A stretch of DNA of 64,000 nucleotides from Lagopus muta (taxonomy: Eukaryota > Chordata > Aves > Galliformes > Phasianidae): positions 32,309,537 to 32,373,536 of the forward strand of contig NC_064440.1 of assembly GCF_023343835.1 (NCBI RefSeq), in the 5' to 3' direction. The translations under genes and the position numbers were made by a program. This document shows positions 1-48,516 of this stretch, in pieces; positions within the stretch are counted from its first letter, which is position 1; the number at the start of each line of letters is the position of its first letter. A model generated the notes under the pieces. The model did no database searches. It was given only the letters and a program-made list of their open reading frames with translations, and had not been told where the DNA came from.

Positions 1-265
1 AAGTTGTGGATAGGGCTGGGATGCGCAGTACGGAACTACATTCTTAAACACTACTTAGTCGGTCTCCTGGCTGCAGAAAAATGAAGCATTAAACTGAACA
101 GTTCGTAATACAATGGCTTATGAGGAAGGGAAGATCATCATGCTCTTTAATACTTTCAAAAGAATCCCTTTGACCAAGTCTTGTGAGATGAAGGCTTGGG
201 CAGGGTGCTTGGGAAAACATCGCCCGATCAGTTTCAACTTATCATCATTTTCAAAATGTTTTTTC

Positions 266-640
266 TAATTTTGACCATGTTTTTTTATTATCATTTATAT
301 TTTTATTATATCATATATTATGATATTATGCATATTATATTATAATATATAATATTTTATTATATAAAATGTGTTATTAATTATAATTACATGTAATAAT
401 ATATAATATATTAAATATTATTATAGTATTATGTATTACATAATAATATATATATAATATATTATTATACATTTTAATATTATATATAATATTTATGTTA
501 TATATATTATATATATTTATTTTATGGTATTATTTTTATTATTATTTATAGTTATATTATGTAATTAATATTCAAGTTTACATATATTTATTACTTATTA
601 CTTTATTGTATTTAAAATTTAAAAAGAAAAAAAACAACAA
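266..640. repeat. AT-rich low-complexity tract
   Basis: About 375 bp made almost only of A and T, with short irregular palindromic units such as TATATAATAT and ATTATTATA. No regular period is obvious by eye. It probably arose by slippage of an AT microsatellite. Confidence 0.8.
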
Positions 641-738
641 ACAAACAAACCTTTAAGTTTTAATTGAGTTAGATTTTGAAACAACCAAGTTTAACTACTG
701 AAATACTCTTTTGAGATACCATCACATCTCCTCTGAAG

Positions 739-767
739 AAAAAAAAAAAAAAAAAAAAAAAAAAAAA
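739..767 (+). repeat. Poly(A) run of 29
   Basis: An uninterrupted run of 29 A. No flanking retroposon body was recognised, so it could be a retroposon tail or a plain mononucleotide repeat. Confidence 0.8.
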
Positions 768-1166
768 CAGAAGTTTGCAGTACACAGCATATGAGCAGGA
801 CTTTACGCTGACCTGTGTCAAAATCATGCCCTGTATTTTCCATTTAAATTTTGTAACTGCCTTGATGTTTGTTAAAGACCAGACATGCTGCTCTACTGCT
901 AGACGCTCAAACTTTCTAACTTCATGAAATCTTAATTTATAAATAAATTTATAGATTTATGACATCGTAATTATACAAAGTTTTAACTCAGTGTAAGAAA
1001 GGCTGTGTTACAAGTAAGTGTTCCGTTGTCCATTTGAAACACTAAAATTGACCGAGGCCCGCACAGTCGATCAGCTGACAGCAAAGCCTGCTGCGCTGGC
1101 TGCTGCTTTCGGTTAGAAAACCCTGCCAGCCCTCCTGTAACCTGTTCTCTGATGCAACCGATTTAG

Positions 1167-1270
1167 GGGTCTACATCCAGGGACTGTTCTTGGATGGAGC
1201 ACGCTGGAACCGAGAAACTAAAAAGCTAAGAGAATCTCATCCGAAAATCCTTTACGATACGGTGCCTGTG
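1167..1270 (+). pseudogene. DNAH7 (pseudogene-like): Penultimate dynein exon of the DNAH7-like relic
   Basis: 104 nt, bounded by an acceptor ending TTTAG and a donor GTGAGT. Two leading bases complete a Gly codon and 34 codons follow with no stop ([13 protein letters not shown] at the start, KILYDTVPV at the end). The exon itself is open; the damage is in the next exon. Confidence 0.83.
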
Positions 1271-1626
1271 GTGAGTGTGTACTACGTTTTGTAACATTTC
1301 TATAGTATTATATGTGAACAAATGCTGTGGATTAAATATCTAAGTGGCTCCCTTTAAGGGAGCAACAGGCTAACGCAAAAGTTTGTAGCATCTCTATGTA
1401 ACAGCGGTACGTTTGGCGTAGCGGATTGCTACCTTGAACAAAATCAGCAAAGACGAGATGCAACAAAAAGCAAGTTTACAGGCTCATCTGTCAAAAAGCA
1501 AACACCGCTCTCAAAACTACTTAGGCCCAACTGAGAATGTTTATCACCTTTCCATTTCCCCCCCCCCGCCCCCTTTTTCTTTTTTTGAAAAGAAAATGTG
1601 AGAAGGATTATTATTCTTTGCTGCAG

Positions 1627-1842
1627 ATATGGTTAAAGCCCTGTAAGAAAGCAGACGTTCCATAACGACGCGGTTACCTGGCTCCAGTGTACAAGACCAG
1701 CAAGCGAAGAGGAATCCTGTCAACCGCTGACCATTCCACCGACTTGGTCACTGCGAGGACCCTTCCTTCCAACAAACCGCAGGAACACTGGATCAAACGT
1801 TATTTTGTCAGCTTAATTCACAAACCTACTGCAATTACTGAG
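1627..1842 (+). pseudogene. DNAH7 (pseudogene-like): Last dynein exon of the DNAH7-like relic, with stop and frameshift
   Basis: The acceptor CTGCAG is followed by ATATGG, continuing the previous exon in phase 0. The 13th codon is TAA (1663-1665), where relatives have a basic residue. The frame then stays open through [13 protein letters not shown] and EHWIKR. After that the expected last residues (CQLNS) appear one frame over, because about 10 bases are missing near 1801. The ancestral stop position now reads CAA. The exon end is therefore approximate. Confidence 0.8.
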
Positions 1843-4460
1843 GGTTCCTTTACTAGATCACCCGTGAGGAACACGTGTCGGTCCTGAACGGCTGTAATAT
1901 CAAAAGGTAAGTCAACACACATATAAAAGTACTCATGAAAAAGCAAAAACCATTTTGCACGTTGCAATTCCTGATGTATAAAATACAGGATTGCGCATTA
2001 AAACCTCATGAAAGCCAGAAAGAGCATCTGCTCCTGCATTTGATCTTTTCCAGCTTTATAAAATTGAAAAAGTAATAATGATAACAAAAAGACCGATAGC
2101 TCGGCTGTATCTTCTAGGATCATAATCACATTAGAAACCGTAGACTCAACTGTTGACAGGAGAGGATTTTTTTATTAAAAAAAAAAATAATAATAATCAC
2201 GCTGAGTCTAGCACCAACAGTATTCCTAGGCATAATCACAGCAGATCGAGTGCAATGTGATCTACATCAAAATTCACATGGGATGTCACACTGTGACAGC
2301 ATTTTAATATACAAATAACATGCCCTCCAACAAACAAAAGTTACCTAAGACACTGGATTTGGTAGAGTGGAATGTACAAACAGAGCAGAAATGTAGTGGA
2401 ATTCAGATTGTCTGTAACGTGACTTGTAAGTGTGCCTGAGAATAATCTGAATTTCAGTATCGGTGGAAAACCTACAGACAAAGTCACAGGTGTCACCCTG
2501 GCCTTCGTAACTTGTAATAAATATGTTACAAAAGTATGTTTTTATTACAAAGTTGTAATAAATAAATACAATATGAAAGACAAACAACTGATGTATTTAA
2601 TGAAAAAAATCCACTACCTGCCTTGACGGATGGTGTTTACCCTTGTCTGAAAACTGTCTTGAAATTAAGGTGAATATTTTCCTATGCTGGCAGCGTATTA
2701 AGCTAAAACCATACTCCAACCAATACCAAAGCAAAAATGCTACCTGAAATAAACGATTTTTCATTTGAAACTTATTAAAAGAAATAAACTTACTAAATTG
2801 ACCAAAACTTTGGTTAGACCACATGGCCTCTTTACACTTGACAGAGTTGAGAAAACAATTACAATTAAGCATCAGTTCGGTAAACAGGCAACATAAGTTA
2901 TAGAAGCTAAGATCCTCAGTAATTATCCCATGACTTAAGTCCCTTAGAAAATGGTACTCAGGGAAGTACTGTCAGCACCGAGTAAATATGTCTCACCTAG
3001 GCACTTAGTGCTGCACAAATTTAGCAAACCAAAGCTTGTAACACTTGCTAATCTGGGTCCGACGGTAAATGTTTTTGGAGAGGAAAACTAACGAGCTGAT
3101 GAGTTCTCAGCATCAAGTGGCCGTGTGTCTCAACTCTGTGTTTCGGCTTCTTCGCCAAAGAAACGGCGTTATTATTTCAAACTGACCCTTAAGCCTACTT
3201 GCATGATTACGAGTGGAACTACAGAATCGACTTGTGCTCCTCAACAGCTCAGCGTATTTGTCCTTAATGACGTAACAGTACAAGAAGAACTCGCTCCTGT
3301 GTGGCAGAATAACCATCTCAGCAAAATCTGAGATGGGACTTGCTCCCAGCATGTCAAAGCCAAAAACTGTCAGTCTATCCTTACAAATTAGGTCATTCGC
3401 TTTTTAATTAAAAAAAAAAAAAAAATCATTTCCAAAAAAAAAAAAAAAAAAACCCACAAAAACACATACAAACAAACTAATTTACGCTGGAAGTAGAAAT
3501 CTTCTTAGCCTCAACCACACAAACTGTTGGTGCCGCTACAACTGATATTGAGGCACTATTGAAACAGAGTAAGTAACCCTACATGCATGTGGCGTATTTT
3601 AGCCTTTGTGCCATCATTCATTAACTAGCATGTTTGTTGTACTTCAACCTAGGAGAAAACATTCCAATTGCATTTTCCTGCTATATCTAAGAACAAACAC
3701 CAAACCAACTTTAGTCAAGAAAGCACCGTCAAAGTGATCCTGGACAGGACATCGTAGCACTTTGCGGCGTATATTGCAATGGCCTGCCTTCTTACACTTG
3801 AAGTTAAAATGAGGGAGTGCGGCTTACTGTTTCGGCCTTGTCTTTTTCCTAACATTTAAGGCGGCACAGTGGTTTCCTCTTATCTGCTTTCATTTTGATT
3901 TAATACTTCAGGTCACCGCTTTGCAGAGGAACCAGCGCTACTCACACAAACACCTACATACACACAGATAGGAGAAGATACATATATAAATATGTATATA
4001 CGTATACACACACACATATCTGTATATGTATATATGCCTGCTGCTTAAGACTTATGTGGTACTGAAAGCATACTCAGGTTCATTTCATAGGTACGATTTT
4101 CAGCTGTAAAATTTTCTGGGTTCTGGTAAACCATGTAAGAAATGCTTTTTTCCTAAGCATGTGCATCCTTTGCTGTCTTTTTTTATGTAAGCAAGCAGCA
4201 CACTGAACTTAGCATTTATTTCCGGAATTTACTATTTCCCAATTGCCACTCAGTGGAGTTTAGAAGATGCTTTCGGGCCATCTCATCTGATTTGAATCGG
4301 AAAAATGCAGCAGATTATACACACAGAAATGAATTGAAGGTACTTGCCTAAGCAGTGCAAGCTGCTGCTTCTCCTCTAAGCTATGTGCCTGCAGTGAAAC
4401 AGTGCAGACTCGAAGTCGTACAGTAATAACATGGTATCCGCAGCGAAACCTGGAATACGG
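1843..4460. other. Spacer between the two relic 3' ends
   Basis: No coding exon was recognised. Being between two convergent 3' ends, it probably derives from the 3' UTRs of the duplicated dynein and zinc-transporter genes. It contains A runs at 3410-3425 and 3433-3451 and an alternating CA/TA microsatellite near 3950-4035. Confidence 0.5.
3950..4035. repeat. CA/TA-type microsatellite, imperfect
   Basis: An imperfect run of ACACA and ATATGTATA units, partly self-complementary (ATATATAAATATGTATATACG). It is a simple repeat without other features. Confidence 0.65.
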
Positions 4461-4618
4461 TCAAAACTGGATGTTAAGCACAATTTCACCTTCGTAGAGG
4501 GCAATCACCAGCATGATGGCAAATCCAAGAAGCAGGCCTAGGTTCTGCGTAATAAACCACCCCGCCTGACAATAAGAAGAGCACGGTTATCTCCGTCTCC
4601 ATGAAGCATTTCTTGAAG
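4461..4618 (-). pseudogene. SLC39A10 (pseudogene-like): Last exon of the SLC39A10-like relic
   Basis: It begins after a good acceptor (TTGCTTTTCTTTTTAG) with LQEMLHGDGDN, matching the ZIP10 LPEMLHGDGDN motif with Pro changed to Gln. It then loses one base (frameshift) and continues as GWFITQNLGLLLGFAIMLV and ends ALYEGEIVLNIQF followed by TGA (4461-4463). The final helix and the terminal residues are well preserved, so decay is moderate. Confidence 0.82.
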
Positions 4619-6578
4619 CTAAAAAGAAAAGCAATTAAAATGAAGTTACTTCACATCTATTCTATTTAATCACTGACAATTTTACAAGATGATATTAATG
4701 GATAAAGAATAAGCAACTGAGGTTTTAGTTACAAAAACGAGCCACTAATACATACTTGAAAGTATACCCAATTACTGTATTTAAGAAAAACGGTCTCAAA
4801 CACGTCCTGTATTTACTAGGCCAATGAAAACTCTTCTGCACCAGGCGCTCCCACGGCTCTTCCTGGATCAGGCGTCTAGCTGAAATTCCAATATCAGGGG
4901 CCAGTCCAGTATTCTCTCGGTCTGCTCTTTCAAGTTTGTTTACTCAATTAAAGGTAGCCACGTGGCTTTATAGACTCGGTCCGTTAACTCAGCCCTTTGT
5001 CTTATTGTATGCGTTACCTGTATTCACACAGGTCTGGGAATAGTGAGGTTCATCGCGCACGCCACAGGTAATTCAGGAAGAATTTCACAGACGTCTATAG
5101 AAAGTTCTGAAAGCTGTGCCTGTTACTCAACTGCAAGGAAAACATCAAATAGTACTGACACAAGCGCTAAGTAAACGCAGACGTGGAAGACGTAAAAATA
5201 AATCTTCCAAAACGCCTTACAGGACCACCAGGCAAGACTAAGGTAACTTAAAGCATTTCCTTTGTTTACCGTACGTTTTTGTCAATTCATTTATTCGTAA
5301 ACCACTTTGAGAGTAAAACGAAACGTTACCCAGATCAAACATAAACTGCAGTCAGTAGAGAGCAAAAGTCTTTATTGTAGCTCTTTGTAAAATAGGCTGT
5401 AACTGTTTTGGCTATTCCAAGTATCTGAATACTGTACAACATAAACAAATTACCAGACCATCAGATCAGCTAAAATGATTCATTTATTGCCTGTTTGCTC
5501 TTGCCTTACCGTATTTCACAAAGATACAAATTCACAAAGATGTAAATTGCTCATCTCTGCTACAGACTACTGAACTTCTCAATTTAGAGGCTCTCAATGG
5601 GACCTATTTCAGTGTCCGAGCATTAAGGCTAGTCCTGTCAATACAAACATGTCTCGCAGTTGAGAATTTATGGTTTCTTGCAGAGATGTGGGAAACAAGG
5701 AATACGACTTTTTTTATAATATGTATGTCACATAACTATATATTATGTATTATAAATTATGTGTATATATAAAATCCATTCAAAAATACATAATATAAAG
5801 TATAAAATACATATAATTTAAAAGTAAGAATAGAATTCAAGGCATCTTGACCTAAGTGACAGCAGAAGGTCATGGAGAGCCTTAAGGATTGAAGATTCCC
5901 TGAGTTGAGTTCAGGTTCTACCTCCACTCAACTAAGAGAAAACTACATTTTAGAAGCATAGAAATATACCTAATTAGATGAACTTCCATCATACGCATGA
6001 ATACCGGAAGGTCAGTCGCCCCTTAGTAGACTTCAGCTGACCTACAAAACAATTAATTACTGTTCCTGTTAGGTGTCAGAAAGCAGGGCCTTAGAGAGGA
6101 AAGCAGATTAAGGTGTCGTAAGAACACGAACTTGGTGCTGTTTCAGGTGTATCTCGCAGAGGCGCTCCTGTTCTTGTTTAGAGTCAAACTATATTGAACA
6201 CTAGCTTGCCTAAGAAAAAGGACCAAGAGTAAAAATACTGCAGAGTAAAAACATTGCCTTCCTTTATACATTCTTCAGTCGAAGTACATCAAGGAAAAAA
6301 AAACAAAACATGAGCACAGAACTTACAGAAAAATAGCTGGTATCCAGTAACTATAGGCTATTGCAAGACATCTATACCTGCACGAGGAGTTATTCTCTAC
6401 TATGCAGCCATTTGCCTCTGCGAGACAAGCACAGGTTTCAACATGATAAGCTAGCACCCCAGAAAAAACTGCAACTGCAGCTATCTACTAGCTATTGGGA
6501 GGAGTATCACGACAGAACTTACACACATGCATTTATTCCATCTTTTGTAGGAAGTGCTGGTTTTATAAAATTCATTAC
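4619..6578 (-). other. Intron-like DNA of the SLC39A10 relic; an expected exon is missing
   Basis: In an intact ZIP protein about 60-70 residues, covering helices after the HELPHELG motif up to LPEM, should be encoded here. I could not find them in any - strand frame. The stretch has an AT-rich part at about 5710-5825 and is otherwise unremarkable. Confidence 0.5.
5708..5825. repeat. AT-rich simple sequence
   Basis: Irregular TATA/ATAATATA units with little G or C, including short inverted repeats. It looks like slippage-derived low complexity. Confidence 0.6.
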
Positions 6579-6659
6579 CTTATTCATGGGGCGGCTTGTG
6601 ACAAAATGCTGCTATACATGTACTAATTCCTCCTGTCAGACCAGCACTAAAAGCTGCTC
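6579..6659 (-). pseudogene. SLC39A10 (pseudogene-like): SLC39A10-like exon for the HELPHELG helix, with stop
   Basis: 81 nt between acceptor TTTCAG and donor GTAATG. The first two bases complete the Gly codon begun in the previous exon, giving GAAFSAGLTGGISTCIAAF and then CHKPPHE. The next codon is TAA (6580-6582), where the family has Leu. The Glu of CHE, a metal-site residue in ZIP transporters, is Lys. Confidence 0.85.
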
Positions 6660-6795
6660 CTGAAAGAATAAAGAAAGAAAAGATACAAATCCTATGTTAC
6701 TGTATAATCAGTGAATGTACAGATGTTGTAATTATGAAATATATCACAGCATTTGGCTAAGCAGCTATTATACACCGAAAGAGGATAGATAGAAC

Positions 6796-6955
6796 GCTTA
6801 CCTGTATCCTGGGCTTGCTATGAAACTCCAGGGAAGGAGATCTTCAGAAGAGATCCTTCCCTGCTGGTAGTCAGCTCTTAAATAGGTCTAGGAGAGGTGG
6901 AGCCAGGCTCCACTGGTGAATTGCCTTCACCTGTGCTCCCGTGGCTGACTCATTG
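6796..6955 (-). repeat. Promoter-like repeat, copy A
   Basis: About 160 bp that align with copy B at 7889-8060 in the same orientation. The best block is 6873-6909, 36 of 37 bases identical to 7966-8002. Read on the - strand it has a GC-rich box (CCTGGCTCCACCTCTCCTAG), then TATTTAAG (6877-6884), then a roughly 70-nt leader ending CCAGGATACAG and GTAAGC, a good splice donor. I do not know the family; a small LTR or a tandemly copied first exon are possible. It lies in an intron of the SLC39A10 relic. Confidence 0.6.
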
Positions 6956-7235
6956 CTCTCCTCAGGGGATCAGTAGGAGGCTCAGGCTGTGATTCAGCAG
7001 TTCCCAGACAGTTACTGTTCTCTAATCAGCAAATTTCATCAACAGACTCACCACCTTTTCTTAAAACACGCGTGCTGATACTTTTTGATTGCACCGGAAG
7101 TACCCTGGTGGGCATTAACGCTGTGTACATTATTACCTAGCTCAACCGAACAGCAGAACTTGAAAAAAGAGAATGTGAAACAGACACAGAAAGGCAAAAG
7201 GGGAAAACTACACCACTGTTTACTTTGCATAGTTG

Positions 7236-7262
7236 TTTTTTTTTTTTTTTTTTTTTTTTTTT
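7236..7262 (+). repeat. Poly(T) run of 27
   Basis: An uninterrupted run of 27 T (poly(A) on the - strand), followed by C6. No retroposon body was recognised next to it. Confidence 0.8.
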
Positions 7263-7741
7263 CCCCCCTTCTTCTTCAGCATAGGAGGAGGAATGACACA
7301 ACAACTGGACTCACAGTACGTTAATTAGAAGTACTGCATACATACTGTTATTAACAAAATGATATTATTGCAAATATTTACAATCCTAAGCAAATATAAT
7401 TCTAAAGAATTTCTTGTTTCTTACTCTAAGGTAAATACTGAGACCCAAACAACCACCAACATGTGTATTTCGGGTATTCCTCAATCCCTAAGGAATTTTC
7501 TCTGTACCTATCTCAATTTGACAGAGATCGCTACTATCGCTGATATCAAGATAGTAATCTTGGTGGAAACAGACAATAGAGCAGAGATTATCAGAGCTGA
7601 TGACCTTTTAATGCCTGCAGTGATTTGACAGTGCTGGTAGCCTTGGGAGACAGGGAGATCTGTCCTGTGATCGCTTATAAAATACTACCCAAGTTACTCG
7701 AGGTAAGAAACTGCCGAGAAACGCTGATTGGTTTTGCTTAC

Positions 7742-7793
7742 CTATTGCTAAGCCATTGCCAAAGTTGTGAATGCCATCTCCCGTGATTACCGC
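7742..7793 (-). pseudogene. SLC39A10 (pseudogene-like): SLC39A10-like exon for the first metal-binding helix
   Basis: 52 nt between acceptor TATACAG and donor GTAAGC, coding AVITGDGIHNFGNGLAIG with the last Gly split across the junction in the phase the next exon needs. ZIP transporters have HNFxDG here; the Asp, a metal ligand position, is Asn. The exon is otherwise open. Confidence 0.85.
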
Positions 7794-7888
7794 CTGTATA
7801 ATCGAAGAATAGTAGGATGTTATAATCACAAAATAAACAAGAGAGTTAGGCAAAGTAGACTATGATAACAAAAAAGAATAAAAGGAGG

Positions 7889-8060
7889 GCTTACCCCTAT
7901 CCTGGGCTCACCACAAAACACCGGCAGAGACCATCTCCAGAAGCGATGCTTCCCCATTGGTAGCCAGCTCTTAAATAGGTCTAGGAGGGGTGGAGCCAGG
8001 CTGCACCCCTTTAGGCAGCACAGCTGAATTGCATTCACCTGCTGACTCGTGGCTCGCCTT
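7889..8060 (-). repeat. Promoter-like repeat, copy B
   Basis: About 170 bp homologous to copy A (6796-6955). On the - strand it carries TATTTAAG at 7970-7977 and ends in CCAGGATAGGGGTAAGC, again donor-like. Its upstream end nearly abuts the last recognisable codon of the SLC39A10-like exon at 8066, so the exon appears cut by insertion or rearrangement at this point. Family unknown. Confidence 0.6.
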
Positions 8061-8065
8061 GCTGA

Positions 8066-8170
8066 CTGAAGCCAGTCAGCATCTGGTCTATTATTTAGTT
8101 TCTGATCTGAAGGTTTCCTTCCAATTGGCGATGCTTCGCTCTGTTTGGTCTCGCACCATTTCTGCTTACT
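8066..8170 (-). pseudogene. SLC39A10 (pseudogene-like): SLC39A10-like loop exon, truncated
   Basis: After an acceptor CTGTTGCAG the exon reads SKQKWCETKQSEAS and IGRKPSDQKLNNRPDADWLQ, 35 codons with no stop, matching the cytoplasmic-loop region of ZIP10. In ZIP10 the exon continues, but here recognisable homology stops at 8066 where repeat copy B begins. This is the most 5' SLC39A10-like exon seen. Confidence 0.83.
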
Positions 8171-8180
8171 CTGCAACAGG

Positions 8181-11100
8181 AAAGATTTAATGTCTGATTT
8201 ATAGAGGGACGTTGTTGGAAATAAAACAAATTGAAATACTGCCAAAAATCTTAGAAAAGACACACGATTTCACTCTTTTTAACGGAGTACAATGTGACGA
8301 AGAATGCTGTAACAGCCAAGAAACACACGTATGCTCGTCGTACTTGCTTCGTTCAAGACGACAGGCGTATAGCAAGAACAGCCCCTATTCTGTTCAATTT
8401 TAAATCATCGACTCCTACAACTTCCTCGTATTTTCCATTAGATAACAGTCTGCTACTTTCCTGTCTGCAGCCCGTACGACAGCCAGCGTGGATTTGCCAA
8501 AGCGGCCTAAGGGATTTAACTGACTGCCCCCGTAGGCGACAGACGTGGTGTCCAGAGGGGAACAGCAGAAGCTTGTTTTCTAAGGGCTGTGTTGTCAGCA
8601 AATCCGTCTCTTTGCAGTCTCCCTTACGCTGGATTCTGCACAACTCGCCCCTTCCTCAGGTCTTGAATTATTAATTAAGTTGAAAAGTCATCCCTGTCTC
8701 TTTTTCAGATTGGGCAGTATGGGGCGCAGAGGAAAATAGATGCCTTTGTTTTTTTTTTTTTCCTAACTGAAATGTCACAGGCTTTTGCTACTGATGTCCT
8801 TGTTTATGTGTGTGGAGAGTTTAATAGGCTGTCCTTTGCCTCCCAGCAGACCCGGTTCTTTTCTGTTCCCTCGGTGCTTTCCAGCCAATAGATGAAGTTT
8901 TAGACCAGATGAACTTTGGGATGGAGACTGTCCCTCCTCCATTCTTACGATGGACTCTTTATTGACCTCCCTGGGGAAGCATCCGATCGGGGGGATCTTC
9001 GACCCGCCCTGCAAGAAAAGAGGTGGCGGATGAGGGATCCGCATGGGTACAGAGGGAAACACAAGCATAGCAAGGAGGCACTGGGCTGGTTGGTTTCCTC
9101 TTGCTCTGACCAAGCTGTCAGTGCGTGGTGTGAACAGAAAGCTCCTGATTTTCTATCAGGTATCCTCTGTGTGAGCAGTGAGCGTGAGGACCTCGGGAAG
9201 GTTGGGGAACCCAACACCTGCAACACGGTGCTGCTGGTTCAGGGAAATTCGGCCCCGTGGGACTGCTGCTCCCCCCCTTCATCCCTTCCTCAAGCTGGTG
9301 TGTGCCGTTTGCGGGCAGGTTTCCTTTGGCCTCTGCCCTCCTGCTGTTTTTCCCTCTCAACGTGAGTATGAATGTGCTGTGGACTCATGGAGCTGGAAGG
9401 TGAGTCTGGGCAGAGGAGGTGGCTGGGGACCCCACAGAGGCCGTTCTTCTTCCTGGGCAACCACAGTGACCTCTGCTGTCACCAAGCAAGTCTGAGCGCT
9501 TGTGCTCTGCTGCAGAGGAGAGGTTTTATTCCAGCTCACCCTGGAGGTCCTCTATAATATGCTGGGCACTGTACCTTGCAGAAATTCTCATTTGTGGTCG
9601 TGTCCCGTATGCTGCTGGACTTGAAAAATGCAGCTCCTGGTATTTGAAGAAAAGCCTCCAGCTGTGCTGGAATGTGGCAGTGTCCTCAGAGGCCCCTCCG
9701 TTAGCCCTTAGCAGCAGCCCCGGCCTCCCGCCACAAATGAGGCAGGGGAGGAAATGAGTTTGCAATGATGTGTTTTTCAGACGTGGTGAAGCCTGCGCTG
9801 GTGGCAGCCACAAGAAGAGCTGTCTGGTGGTTTCCAGGGCTGTCTGTGCTCAGAGAAAGGTAGAAATCTGAAGTTTCTGTTGTTAGCGGTGGTATAGAAA
9901 TGTCCTGGACAAGCAACAAGCACAACCCCAGGCCTTCAGGGTCGTTTCTACTGCTACAAGCTGCTACAGTGCAGCTTGTCGCTTCTTTGGCAAGGACCCT
10001 GGCCTGGAAATCGAGAGGTTGGGATGTATTTGGCAGCTCTGGCATCGGCTTGCTGAGAGGCTCAGACAGCTTTTACCTGCCCCCTACTTTCAATACAAAG
10101 CCCCTTTGGTTCTAACCCTCACCCCAACCCTTATTCCTCAAAATTAGTCCCAAGATACCATTTGAAAGTACAGTATTCAAATAATAGCTTCTAAAATATC
10201 TCCTCTCCTCCTCGTTTTTCTTTATTAACAGCTGTAGAGTATTTCTAATGTGACGGGAAACATCCTCCGTTGTTCCTCCTCTATATTTGACTGAAATGAA
10301 GCTGCCCGCCTGCGCAGTGGTACCCACCTCTGCTATTCTGGGCCCTGTGCAATTTGGAGAGTGACAACTTACCTTAACTATTGGAGCATCGACCGCTTCA
10401 CCAAGTTCTCCCGGGCGTTGCGGTCCCTGCTTCCTGCCACGGCTCCTGATTCCTGCATGGAAACCATCACCGATACAAAGCGGGTGGAGAGGGCGGCTTT
10501 TCATAGAATCGTAGCCTTCAGGTAAGGCTGATTTGTCTCTATTTAGTGTTACGCCATATTAAGCACGTATTCATTAACTGCAGTTCATTTTCCTTGGCTT
10601 GACAGGACTCTGGGTTGCCACAACTCTTGTTTGAAACAAACCACCACCGTGGCATTCCTTGCAGCTAATGACAGGGAAGCTCAAACCTGGCAACTGCTAC
10701 CTTAAAAAGTAATAGAAAAAGGAAACAAAACCCCTGAGAAAGCTGTGCATACGTAGCAAAGGAGTAGCAATGGGCATGCAAATAACACGGTAAACTGCTT
10801 CATAGGGCAGCCGATTAAGTGATATAAAGAAAGCATCCAGCCCGTGTGTTTCCCAGCTCCTGCAGTGCTGCATGGACCGTGAGTGTGCGCAGGAAGGTGT
10901 CTGAACACCTTCTGTGTGCCAGCGAGGCTTGGGACGTGATGCCTTCAGCCGTGGTTCAGCTGCTGAGGAAGGAGTGGCAGTTCTGAGCTCCCCAGCTCCG
11001 TGTTGACCTGAAGGAGAGAGGCAGAGAAACGGAGGAGGCAGGTGCTATACGGCATGTGGTGAAAGAGATCGGCTGGCTTGTCGTGCAGCACAGCCCTCCT

Positions 11101-13504: not shown

Positions 13505-15055
13505 TTGTTTTTTTTTCTTTTATTTTTTACTTATTTGTTCATTTTTTATTGATTTCGTTTTCATTTATTTTTAAGTTTTTAATCTAGTATTTTATTCTTT
13601 TAATTTTAAATTTAGTTTTATTTTCTTTTCAATTTCACTTATTTTTTTAATTTTATATTATTATTTTACCTTTTTTCTTTATTTTTAATTTTTAAATGTT
13701 TATTTTTTGTTAATTTGTTTTTATTTTGTTATTTCCTTTTTATTTTACTTTTTTGTTTTATTTTTATTTATTTCATTTTTAAATTTTCTTTTATTTTTAA
13801 TTTATTTTTATTTCTATTTTTTACTTTCATTTTCATATTTATTTTTAGGTTTTTATTTTTGTTTTTTATTTACTTTTTATTATTTTATTGCTTTTAATTT
13901 TTATTATTTACTAATTATTATTTAATAATTACTTTATTATTATTTATTAAATTTCTTTTTATTTCTTTTTATTTTTTCATTTATTTTAAATTTTTAATTA
14001 TTTATTCCCTTTTTATTTTTCCATTTTTTATTTTTTAATTTCATTTTCATTTTTTATTTACTTTTTATTTTTTTCATTTTTATTTTTATTTCCTTTCTAT
14101 ATTTAATCTTTATTTTTAGTTGTTCTTAATTTATTTTTATTTTAATTTTTTATTATTCATTTATTTTTATTTCAATTTTTTATTTTTCATTTATTTTTAT
14201 TTCGTTTTTCATTTTGTGTAATTCATTTTTATTATTTTACTTCCTTTCTATTATTTTTTCTTTTTTTCTTTTCTATTTCCTTCCTATTTTTTGTTTTTCA
14301 TTAGTATTTTATTTCCTTTTTATTGTTTTATTGTTTTTAAATTCCTTTTTATTTCTTTTTATTTCATTTATTTTTAATTTTATTTACTTATTTATTTGTT
14401 TTTATTTTTCCATTTTTCATTTTTTATTTTTATTTCCTTTTTTAAATTTCCTTTTTATTTTTTCATTTTTATTTTTATTTCCGTTTTATTTTTCGTCTTT
14501 ATTTTTATTTCTTAATTTATTTTTATTTCTTTTAATTTTTTTATTTTTCATTTATTATTTTTATTTCATTTTTCATTTTGTTTTTTTTTAATTCATTTTT
14601 ATTATTTCTTTTATTATTTTTTTCTTTTCTATTTCTTTCTTATTTTTTATTTTTCATTAGTATTTTTATTTCCTTTTCATTATTTTTATTTCCTTTTTAT
14701 TTTTCGTCTTTATTTTTAGTTGTTCTTAATTTATTTTTATTTCTTTTAATTTTTAATTTTTTCATTTTTTAAAATTCATTTTTATTATTTTACTTCCTTT
14801 TTATTTTTTTCTTTTCTACTTCCTCCTTATTTTTTTTTGTTAGTATTTTTATTTCCTTTTATTATTTTTCATTTTTTTATTTTCGCTTTATTTTTATTTA
14901 TTTCCTTTTAATTTTTAAAACGTTTCTTTTATTCATTTTCCGTTATTTTCTTTTGCATTTCATAGTATAATTTTATAATAGTTTATCATATTTTTATCAT
15001 ATTTTATGATACTTCAATATTTTATAATATTTTATATGCTGTATTTTACTTCTTA
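13505..15055. repeat. Long T/A-rich, nearly G-free tract
   Basis: About 1.5 kb built from TTTTATTT, TTTCATTT and TTCCTTTTTATT units on the + strand, with very few G. Inside it, longer similar blocks recur: an ATTCATTTTTATTA landmark occurs at about 14221, 14591 and 14774, spaced about 370 and 183, suggesting a higher-order unit near 180-185 bp. On the - strand it is A-rich with AATAAA many times over. The F/L/Y-rich open frames across it are by-products of composition. Confidence 0.85.

Positions 15056-21977: not shown

Positions 21978-48516
<26,539 letters not shown>

What the first reader, a model, noticed from the sequence alone, without database searches (positions are those of the whole stretch)
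1167..8170. Dead tail-to-tail DNAH7/SLC39A10 pair downstream of ERBB4
Two + strand exons code the last residues of a DNAH7-like dynein, and four - strand exons code a SLC39A10-like zinc transporter. Their stop positions face each other only 2.6 kb apart. In mammals the 3' ends of DNAH7 and SLC39A10 adjoin in the same convergent arrangement, but far from ERBB4. Introns and splice sites are kept, so this was a DNA-level duplication of the locus followed by decay, not two retrocopies.
Basis: partly seen in the sequence, partly recalled or inferred. Interest (0 to 1): 0.75.

Follow-up and report, generated by a model that had tools for sequence, protein, structure and literature searches.

The report
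Decayed duplicate of DNAH7–SLC39A10 gene ends
In what appears to be a bird genome, a dead, old DNA copy of the place where the genes DNAH7 and SLC39A10 meet lies beside ERBB4, while the working pair and a second dead copy sit a few million bases away on the same chromosome; this is ordinary duplication and decay, with signs that the copies have exchanged sequence since.

Summary
Confirmed in substance. Window 1-8521 is the right part of an 18.1 kb block (C, C11:32,299,956-32,318,057) that matches, introns and intergenic DNA included, 24.8 kb at the convergent 3' ends of DNAH7 and SLC39A10 elsewhere on the same contig (A, C11:27,325,500-27,350,341). At A the last ten DNAH7 and last four SLC39A10 exons are open; the DNAH7 part aligns to the last 573 residues of DNAH7 in the PDB with gaps only at my exon joints. 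C is dead: stop, 10-bp deletion and lost stop codon in DNAH7's last exon; frameshift, deleted exon, truncated exon and stop in SLC39A10. So: duplicated as DNA, not retrocopied. Corrections: three, not four, SLC39A10 exons remain, and the block starts 9.6 kb before the window. New: a second dead copy (B, inverted, at least 79 kb, C11:28.781-28.861 Mb) spans most of the DNAH7 sequence examined. B is a mosaic: A-like in most sampled parts, C-like in one tract (with shared stops just beyond it), nearly identical to A in another. This suggests exchange among copies 1.4-5 Mb apart. An ordinary kind of object; modest interest.

The parts
1..8521 (.). Window part of copy C: duplicated block of the DNAH7/SLC39A10 junction; whole block C11:32,299,956-32,318,057, i.e. 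from about 9.6 kb left of the window to 8521
   Evidence: blastn to copy A; edges read
1166..1270 (+). DNAH7 pseudogene, penultimate exon; frame still open, donor GT kept
   Evidence: 34 of 35 residues identical to copy A; PDB match DNAH7; alignment
1627..1823 (+). DNAH7 pseudogene, last exon: in-frame TAA at 1663-1665, 10-base deletion near the end, ancestral stop codon at 1821-1823 lost
4461..4618 (-). SLC39A10 pseudogene, last exon: stop codon 4461-4463, one-base deletion (frameshift) near 4580
6426..6469 (.). Site of a ~1.8 kb deletion relative to copy A; removed the SLC39A10 exon that begins GDFAVLLKAG
   Evidence: HSP break; no tblastn match of that exon in C
6577..6660 (-). SLC39A10 pseudogene exon (GAAFSAGLTGG...), with an in-frame stop
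6701..7013 (.). Dispersed repeat copy, present at the matching place in all three copies, hence older than the duplications; copy B ends at its edge
7740..7800 (-). SLC39A10 pseudogene, 3' remnant (~23 codons) of the next exon; the rest lost
7795..8041 (.). Second dispersed repeat copy, sitting where ~1.6 kb of copy A sequence (with most of that exon) is missing
8066..8521 (.). Remnant of DNA between SLC39A10 exons, 90% to A; right edge of the block at 8521. Not an exon
21981..22439 (-). ERBB4 last coding exon (landmark, not part of the block), ~13.5 kb from the right edge
   Evidence: name by recalled C-terminal motifs

Best explanation
A piece of chromosome spanning the facing 3' ends of DNAH7 and SLC39A10 (24.8 kb in today's copy A) was copied as DNA to the 3' side of ERBB4, about 5 Mb away on the same contig (shown by intron and intergenic alignment; direction A to C inferred because A alone is intact and continues into the gene bodies). 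Holding only gene ends, without promoter or start, it decayed (disablements shown). Later a second, inverted copy of at least 79 kb (B), with much of DNAH7 and the end of SLC39A10, arose 1.4 Mb from A and decayed too (presence and breakage shown; order inferred from divergence). The copies then appear to have exchanged sequence by interlocus gene conversion: A rewrote much of B's 3' part and perhaps, earlier, part of C; B and C share one tract (uneven divergence shown; mechanism and direction inferred). No function of C is indicated. The confidence given is for duplication as DNA followed by decay; for exchange after B's birth I would put about 0.65.
For: Three loci on one contig. The DNAH7 exon query finds only these three at high identity, C18 being another dynein at 40-69% (26 of 180 candidates scored); the SLC39A10 query finds the same three loci, then paralogues at 41-68% (27 of 27 scored). 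A open over the last 10 DNAH7 exons, 566 residues, 1087 bits to DNAH7 in the PDB against 800 to the next kind, and over the last four SLC39A10 exons (Pfam Zip 205 bits). C broken. Sharp block edges. B broken. K80 by HSP: A-C 0.13-0.24 except 0.097 at 86.3-89.2k, 0.092 in the last piece and two short pieces at 0.28-0.34; A-B 0.08 at 65-73k, rising to 0.25-0.30 at 80-84.6k, then 0.037-0.073; B-C 0.037-0.088 at 79.5-84k, else 0.105-0.175 (repeat piece 0.298). Site patterns differ between four segments (chi2 661, 6 df); best A=B and B=C tracts score 314 and 218 against shuffle maxima of 23 and 13 in 500 shuffles.
Against: No outgroup bird, so duplication order and conversion direction rest on divergence and on which copy is intact. 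The three-way alignment is poor at A 80-84.6k: it gave K of 0.27-0.8 for A-B and A-C there in most windows where HSPs give 0.21-0.30, one short piece 0.34; the chi2 and the shuffles rest on that alignment and ignore linkage among sites. Part of the mosaic could come from how B was formed. Decay of C is uneven: two of its DNAH7 exons are still open at 95% and 97% residue identity. A-C divergence itself differs between the left (about 0.2) and right (about 0.15) parts, which regional rates could also give. In one search a stop is flagged in 6 of 15 matches in A; each lies where the match overruns the open frame listed, which I take for intron, not damage.
Confidence: 0.9

Rival explanations
1. 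Two separate retrocopies landed tail to tail by chance.
For: Both remnants are 3' ends, which truncated retrocopies favour.
Against: Introns and the intergenic DNA align along 18 kb in the same order.
Confidence: 0.01
2. The block is the relic of a chromosome break: the ancestral locus was here and the genes moved away by inversion or transposition, leaving ends behind.
For: A, B and C lie on one contig within 5 Mb, B inverted; a break with duplicated ends can leave such relics.
Against: C holds copies of both gene ends across the junction while A's junction is complete, so sequence was duplicated, not split; in human the pair is also named together (PMC7856608, passages).
Confidence: 0.07
3. 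B's mosaic arose at its birth, by template switching between A and C during the copying, with little later conversion.
For: B-C K80 in the C-like tract (0.084-0.088 in its two longer pieces) is close to A-B K80 in the A-like 5' part (0.08-0.11).
Against: A-B K80 is 0.037-0.05 at 84.7-94.8k and 0.004-0.016 per 500-base window at 85.5-88.5k, too low for the same event; at least one later exchange is needed.
Confidence: 0.3
4. C is kept as a regulatory or noncoding RNA element beside ERBB4.
For: It lies on the 3' side of ERBB4, its SLC39A10 part in ERBB4's orientation; the piece at A 86.3-89.2k is less diverged (K80 0.097) and holds two still open exons.
Against: Large deletions and a repeat insertion; no Rfam match in the window; the low-divergence piece also fits old conversion. 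Transcription was not testable.
Confidence: 0.03

Closest known systems
Duplicated (unprocessed) pseudogene
   Same: Introns kept, intact parent elsewhere, several disabling changes.
   Different: Carries the ends of two convergent genes in one block, neither with a start.
Interspersed intrachromosomal segmental duplication
   Same: Same contig, Mb spacing, direct and inverted copies, sharp edges.
   Different: C is mostly below the customary 90% identity (threshold recalled).
Interlocus gene conversion between a gene and its pseudogenes
   Same: Alternating tracts of high and low identity among the copies.
   Different: Only three copies in one genome; direction and rate not measured.

Membership tests
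Unprocessed (duplicated) pseudogene | Introns of the parent retained | tested here: met
   aligned pieces 71-90% over the block, 79-90% inside the window
Unprocessed (duplicated) pseudogene | Disabling changes | tested here: met
Unprocessed (duplicated) pseudogene | Intact parent in the genome | tested here: met
   Copy A: last 10 DNAH7 exons and last 4 SLC39A10 exons open; DNAH7 exons further 5' seen only as single open frames; whole genes not assembled
Processed retrocopy | Introns absent, exons fused | tested here: not met
Segmental duplication (customary >=1 kb, >=90% identity; recalled) | Identity of 90% or more over 1 kb | tested here: not met
   A-C pieces 71-90%, only one 461-base piece at 90.2%. 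A-B meets it in parts
Interlocus gene conversion | Divergence between copies varies in tracts | tested here: met
   with the alignment caveat stated
Interlocus gene conversion | Copies within a species more alike than orthologues | not testable with these tools
   No other bird genome held

The most novel reading that the evidence does not exclude
A working axonemal dynein gene and two of its own dead copies, 1.4 and 5 Mb away and in different orientations, have formed a three-way gene conversion network over tens of millions of years, in which dead copies exchange sequence with each other and one is still being overwritten by the live gene up to recent times; the live gene's 3' end would then be at risk of receiving the dead copies' stops.
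Probability: 0.3. Interest if true: 0.5.

Novelty: new member of a known kind. Interest (0 to 1): 0.33.

Why it matters
It is a clean case where one block carries the ends of two genes, so that DNA-level duplication can be told from retrocopying at a glance, and where three copies of known state on one contig would allow exchange tracts, their direction and their dates to be measured once other birds are added. It also warns annotation and variant calling at DNAH7 and SLC39A10 in this species: B is 98-99.6% identical to the live gene over 3 kb, so short reads could be misplaced (inference).

Tried and rejected
Fourth SLC39A10 exon: looked for in A and C at the matching place, no open frame. 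Rfam on the window: 0 matches at gathering score against 4227 families. ZIP remnant against PDB sequences: only a chance avidin match, E 0.18. Literature, five searches of an open-licence library: DNAH7+SLC39A10+duplication+bird 0 papers; DNAH7+SLC39A10 6 papers, seen as listing with abstract starts, and passages of one, PMC7856608; DNAH7+segmental duplication+avian 0; DNAH7+chicken+gene duplication 0; interlocus gene conversion+pseudogene+avian+segmental duplication 4, listing with abstract starts only. No description of these copies was seen there. A 10 kb query to the genome search missed even its own place and was not used; queries of 5.5-8 kb found theirs. K80 from the global alignment at A 80-84.6k was set aside for HSP values. 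First MAFFT attempt was killed. The DNA search with A 100,001-106,000 did not complete, so SLC39A10's upstream part was not searched as DNA.

Full report
The window lies in a genome of 1.027 Gb in 165 contigs, at C11:32,309,537-32,373,536.

Observation. The two + strand exons translate to the very end of an axonemal dynein. Against PDB chains the best matches are two named Dynein axonemal heavy chain 7 (148 and 141 bits); next come a 4069-residue chain labelled malate dehydrogenase 1B (104 bits; by length and alignment a mislabelled dynein) and chains named DNAH12 and DNAH3 (101-103 bits). The second exon has a TAA in frame at 1663-1665, a 10-base deletion, and has lost the terminal stop codon. 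On the - strand three SLC39A10 exons remain: the last (4461-4618, one-base frameshift), one at 6577-6660 (in-frame stop) and a 3' remnant at about 7740-7800. The exon between the first two was removed by a deletion at 6426/6469, and the stretch at 8066-8521 is not coding in either copy.

Where it comes from. Searching the genome with window 1000-8300 gave two other places on the same contig, beside short dispersed repeats: C11:27.338-27.350 Mb (+, here A) and C11:28.781-28.788 Mb (-, here B); 40 of 4327 candidates were scored. I read 200 kb at A, 41 kb at B and 14 kb left of the window. Positions written 'k' below are offsets in A from C11:27,250,000. The window copy, C, matches A from 75.5k to 100.3k in order, through introns and the space between the genes, in pieces of 71-90% identity; 24.8 kb of A correspond to 18.1 kb of C. 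Both edges are sharp, and the flanks match the 200 kb of A only in dispersed repeats. Such a match excludes retrocopies.

Which copy works. The last ten DNAH7 exons of A are open and join into 566 residues that align to residues 3452-4024 of DNAH7 in the PDB with gaps only at my exon joints, 1087 bits against 800 for the next kind. The last four SLC39A10 exons of A are open, and give Pfam Zip at 205 bits. flags a stop in 6 of its 15 matches in A; each match there runs beyond the open frame listed, so I read these as intron. In C, of the ten exons, tblastn finds remnants of seven, five of them left of the window, with stops in three; two are still open and 95% and 97% identical in residues. In B it finds six: one with two stops and small gaps, one with C-like altered residues and four at 90-100% identity. 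Further 5' B has an exon match with four stops, a frame break and an exon split with loss, and one with a deletion and two stops.

Extent of B. Pieces of A used as DNA queries match B: A 10.0-16.0k at 93%, 30.0-36.0k at 91%, 64.0-70.0k at 90%, 70.0-78.0k in three pieces at 82-87%. A 0-6k gave no match at B (40 of 5685 candidates scored). B ends on the SLC39A10 side at 28,781,312, the edge of a dispersed repeat. B is thus an inverted copy of at least 79 kb, sampled and not read through; its 5' edge should lie between A 6k and 10k, so it apparently lacks the first part of DNAH7.

Number of copies. A query of 1802 residues of A's DNAH7 exons found A, B and C and, at 40-69% identity, exons on C18 that I take for another axonemal dynein (26 of 180 candidates scored). 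The SLC39A10 query found A, B and C, then paralogues at 41-68% (27 of 27 scored). A query from the part of C left of the window found A, B and C, and otherwise short matches that I take for repeats (40 of 228 scored). Unscored candidates were not seen.

Mosaic. HSP-based K80. A-C: 0.151-0.235 at 75.5-85.7k apart from one short piece at 0.342, 0.097 at 86.3-89.2k, 0.131-0.150 at 89.3-98.3k, 0.092 in the last 460 bases; a repeat piece (0.278) is left aside. A-B: 0.080 at 65.0-73.4k, 0.112 at 73.7-76.7k, 0.185 at 76.7-80.2k, 0.249-0.300 at 80.3-84.6k, then 0.073, 0.037, 0.050 and 0.066 up to 96.5k; a repeat match (0.319) is left aside. B-C: 0.175, then 0.084, 0.037 (139 bases) and 0.088 across A 79.5-84k, then 0.153, 0.152, 0.105, 0.153, 0.157, 0.149; a repeat piece (0.298) is left aside. 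In that tract B and C share altered residues in one exon (83.4-83.6k); two shared stops lie in the next exon but one (84.45-84.68k), just beyond it, where B-C is 0.153 against 0.285 for A-B and 0.227 for A-C. In 500-base windows A and B differ by only 0.004-0.016 at 85.5-88.5k. Shared-site patterns differ strongly between four segments (chi2 661, 6 df), and the best A=B and B=C tracts score 314 and 218 against maxima of 23 and 13 in 500 shuffles; both controls ignore linkage and rest on an alignment that is weak at 80-84.6k. An A=C tract of about 70 bases also exceeded the shuffles (17 against 8), but lies in the badly aligned part and I do not lean on it.

Reading. Simplest order: C is the oldest copy; B is younger; B received or inherited a tract like C's and was later rewritten by A in its 3' part. 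The direction A to B is inferred from A being intact. Whether B's C-like tract came at its birth or later is open. With a recalled avian rate of about 2e-9 per site per year, A-C would be roughly 35-55 million years, A-B's less affected part about 20-28, and the freshest A-B tract 1-4; these are rough and conversion lowers them.

In human the two genes are named together for one interval of chromosome 2 (PMC7856608, passages read); that their 3' ends face each other there is recalled. Copy A shows that arrangement directly in this genome.

Verdict. The finding is real and correctly read in its main claim. It is an old, partial, duplicated pseudogene block of an ordinary kind; the three-copy mosaic is the part worth following.

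Noticed in passing
C11:28,781,312-28,860,697 (copy B; partly read in L029-L031, L034-L036): A second, inverted, larger dead copy with much of DNAH7 plus the SLC39A10 end, mosaic between A-like and C-like tracts.
   Followed up: partly
L017, about C11:27,334,700-27,335,400: Tandem array in a DNAH7 intron of the intact copy, open in several frames as FLRSYVLT-like repeats.
   Followed up: no
window 13552-14903: About 1.3 kb of T-rich degenerate tandem repeats between the dead block and the ERBB4 last exon.
   Followed up: no
C18:228,401-244,906: Another axonemal dynein with a 741-codon open stretch over parts that are separate exons in DNAH7.
   Followed up: no
window 6701-7013 and 7795-8041: Two dispersed repeat copies of about 250-320 bases, with scored matches on several contigs at 82-90% identity.
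   Followed up: no
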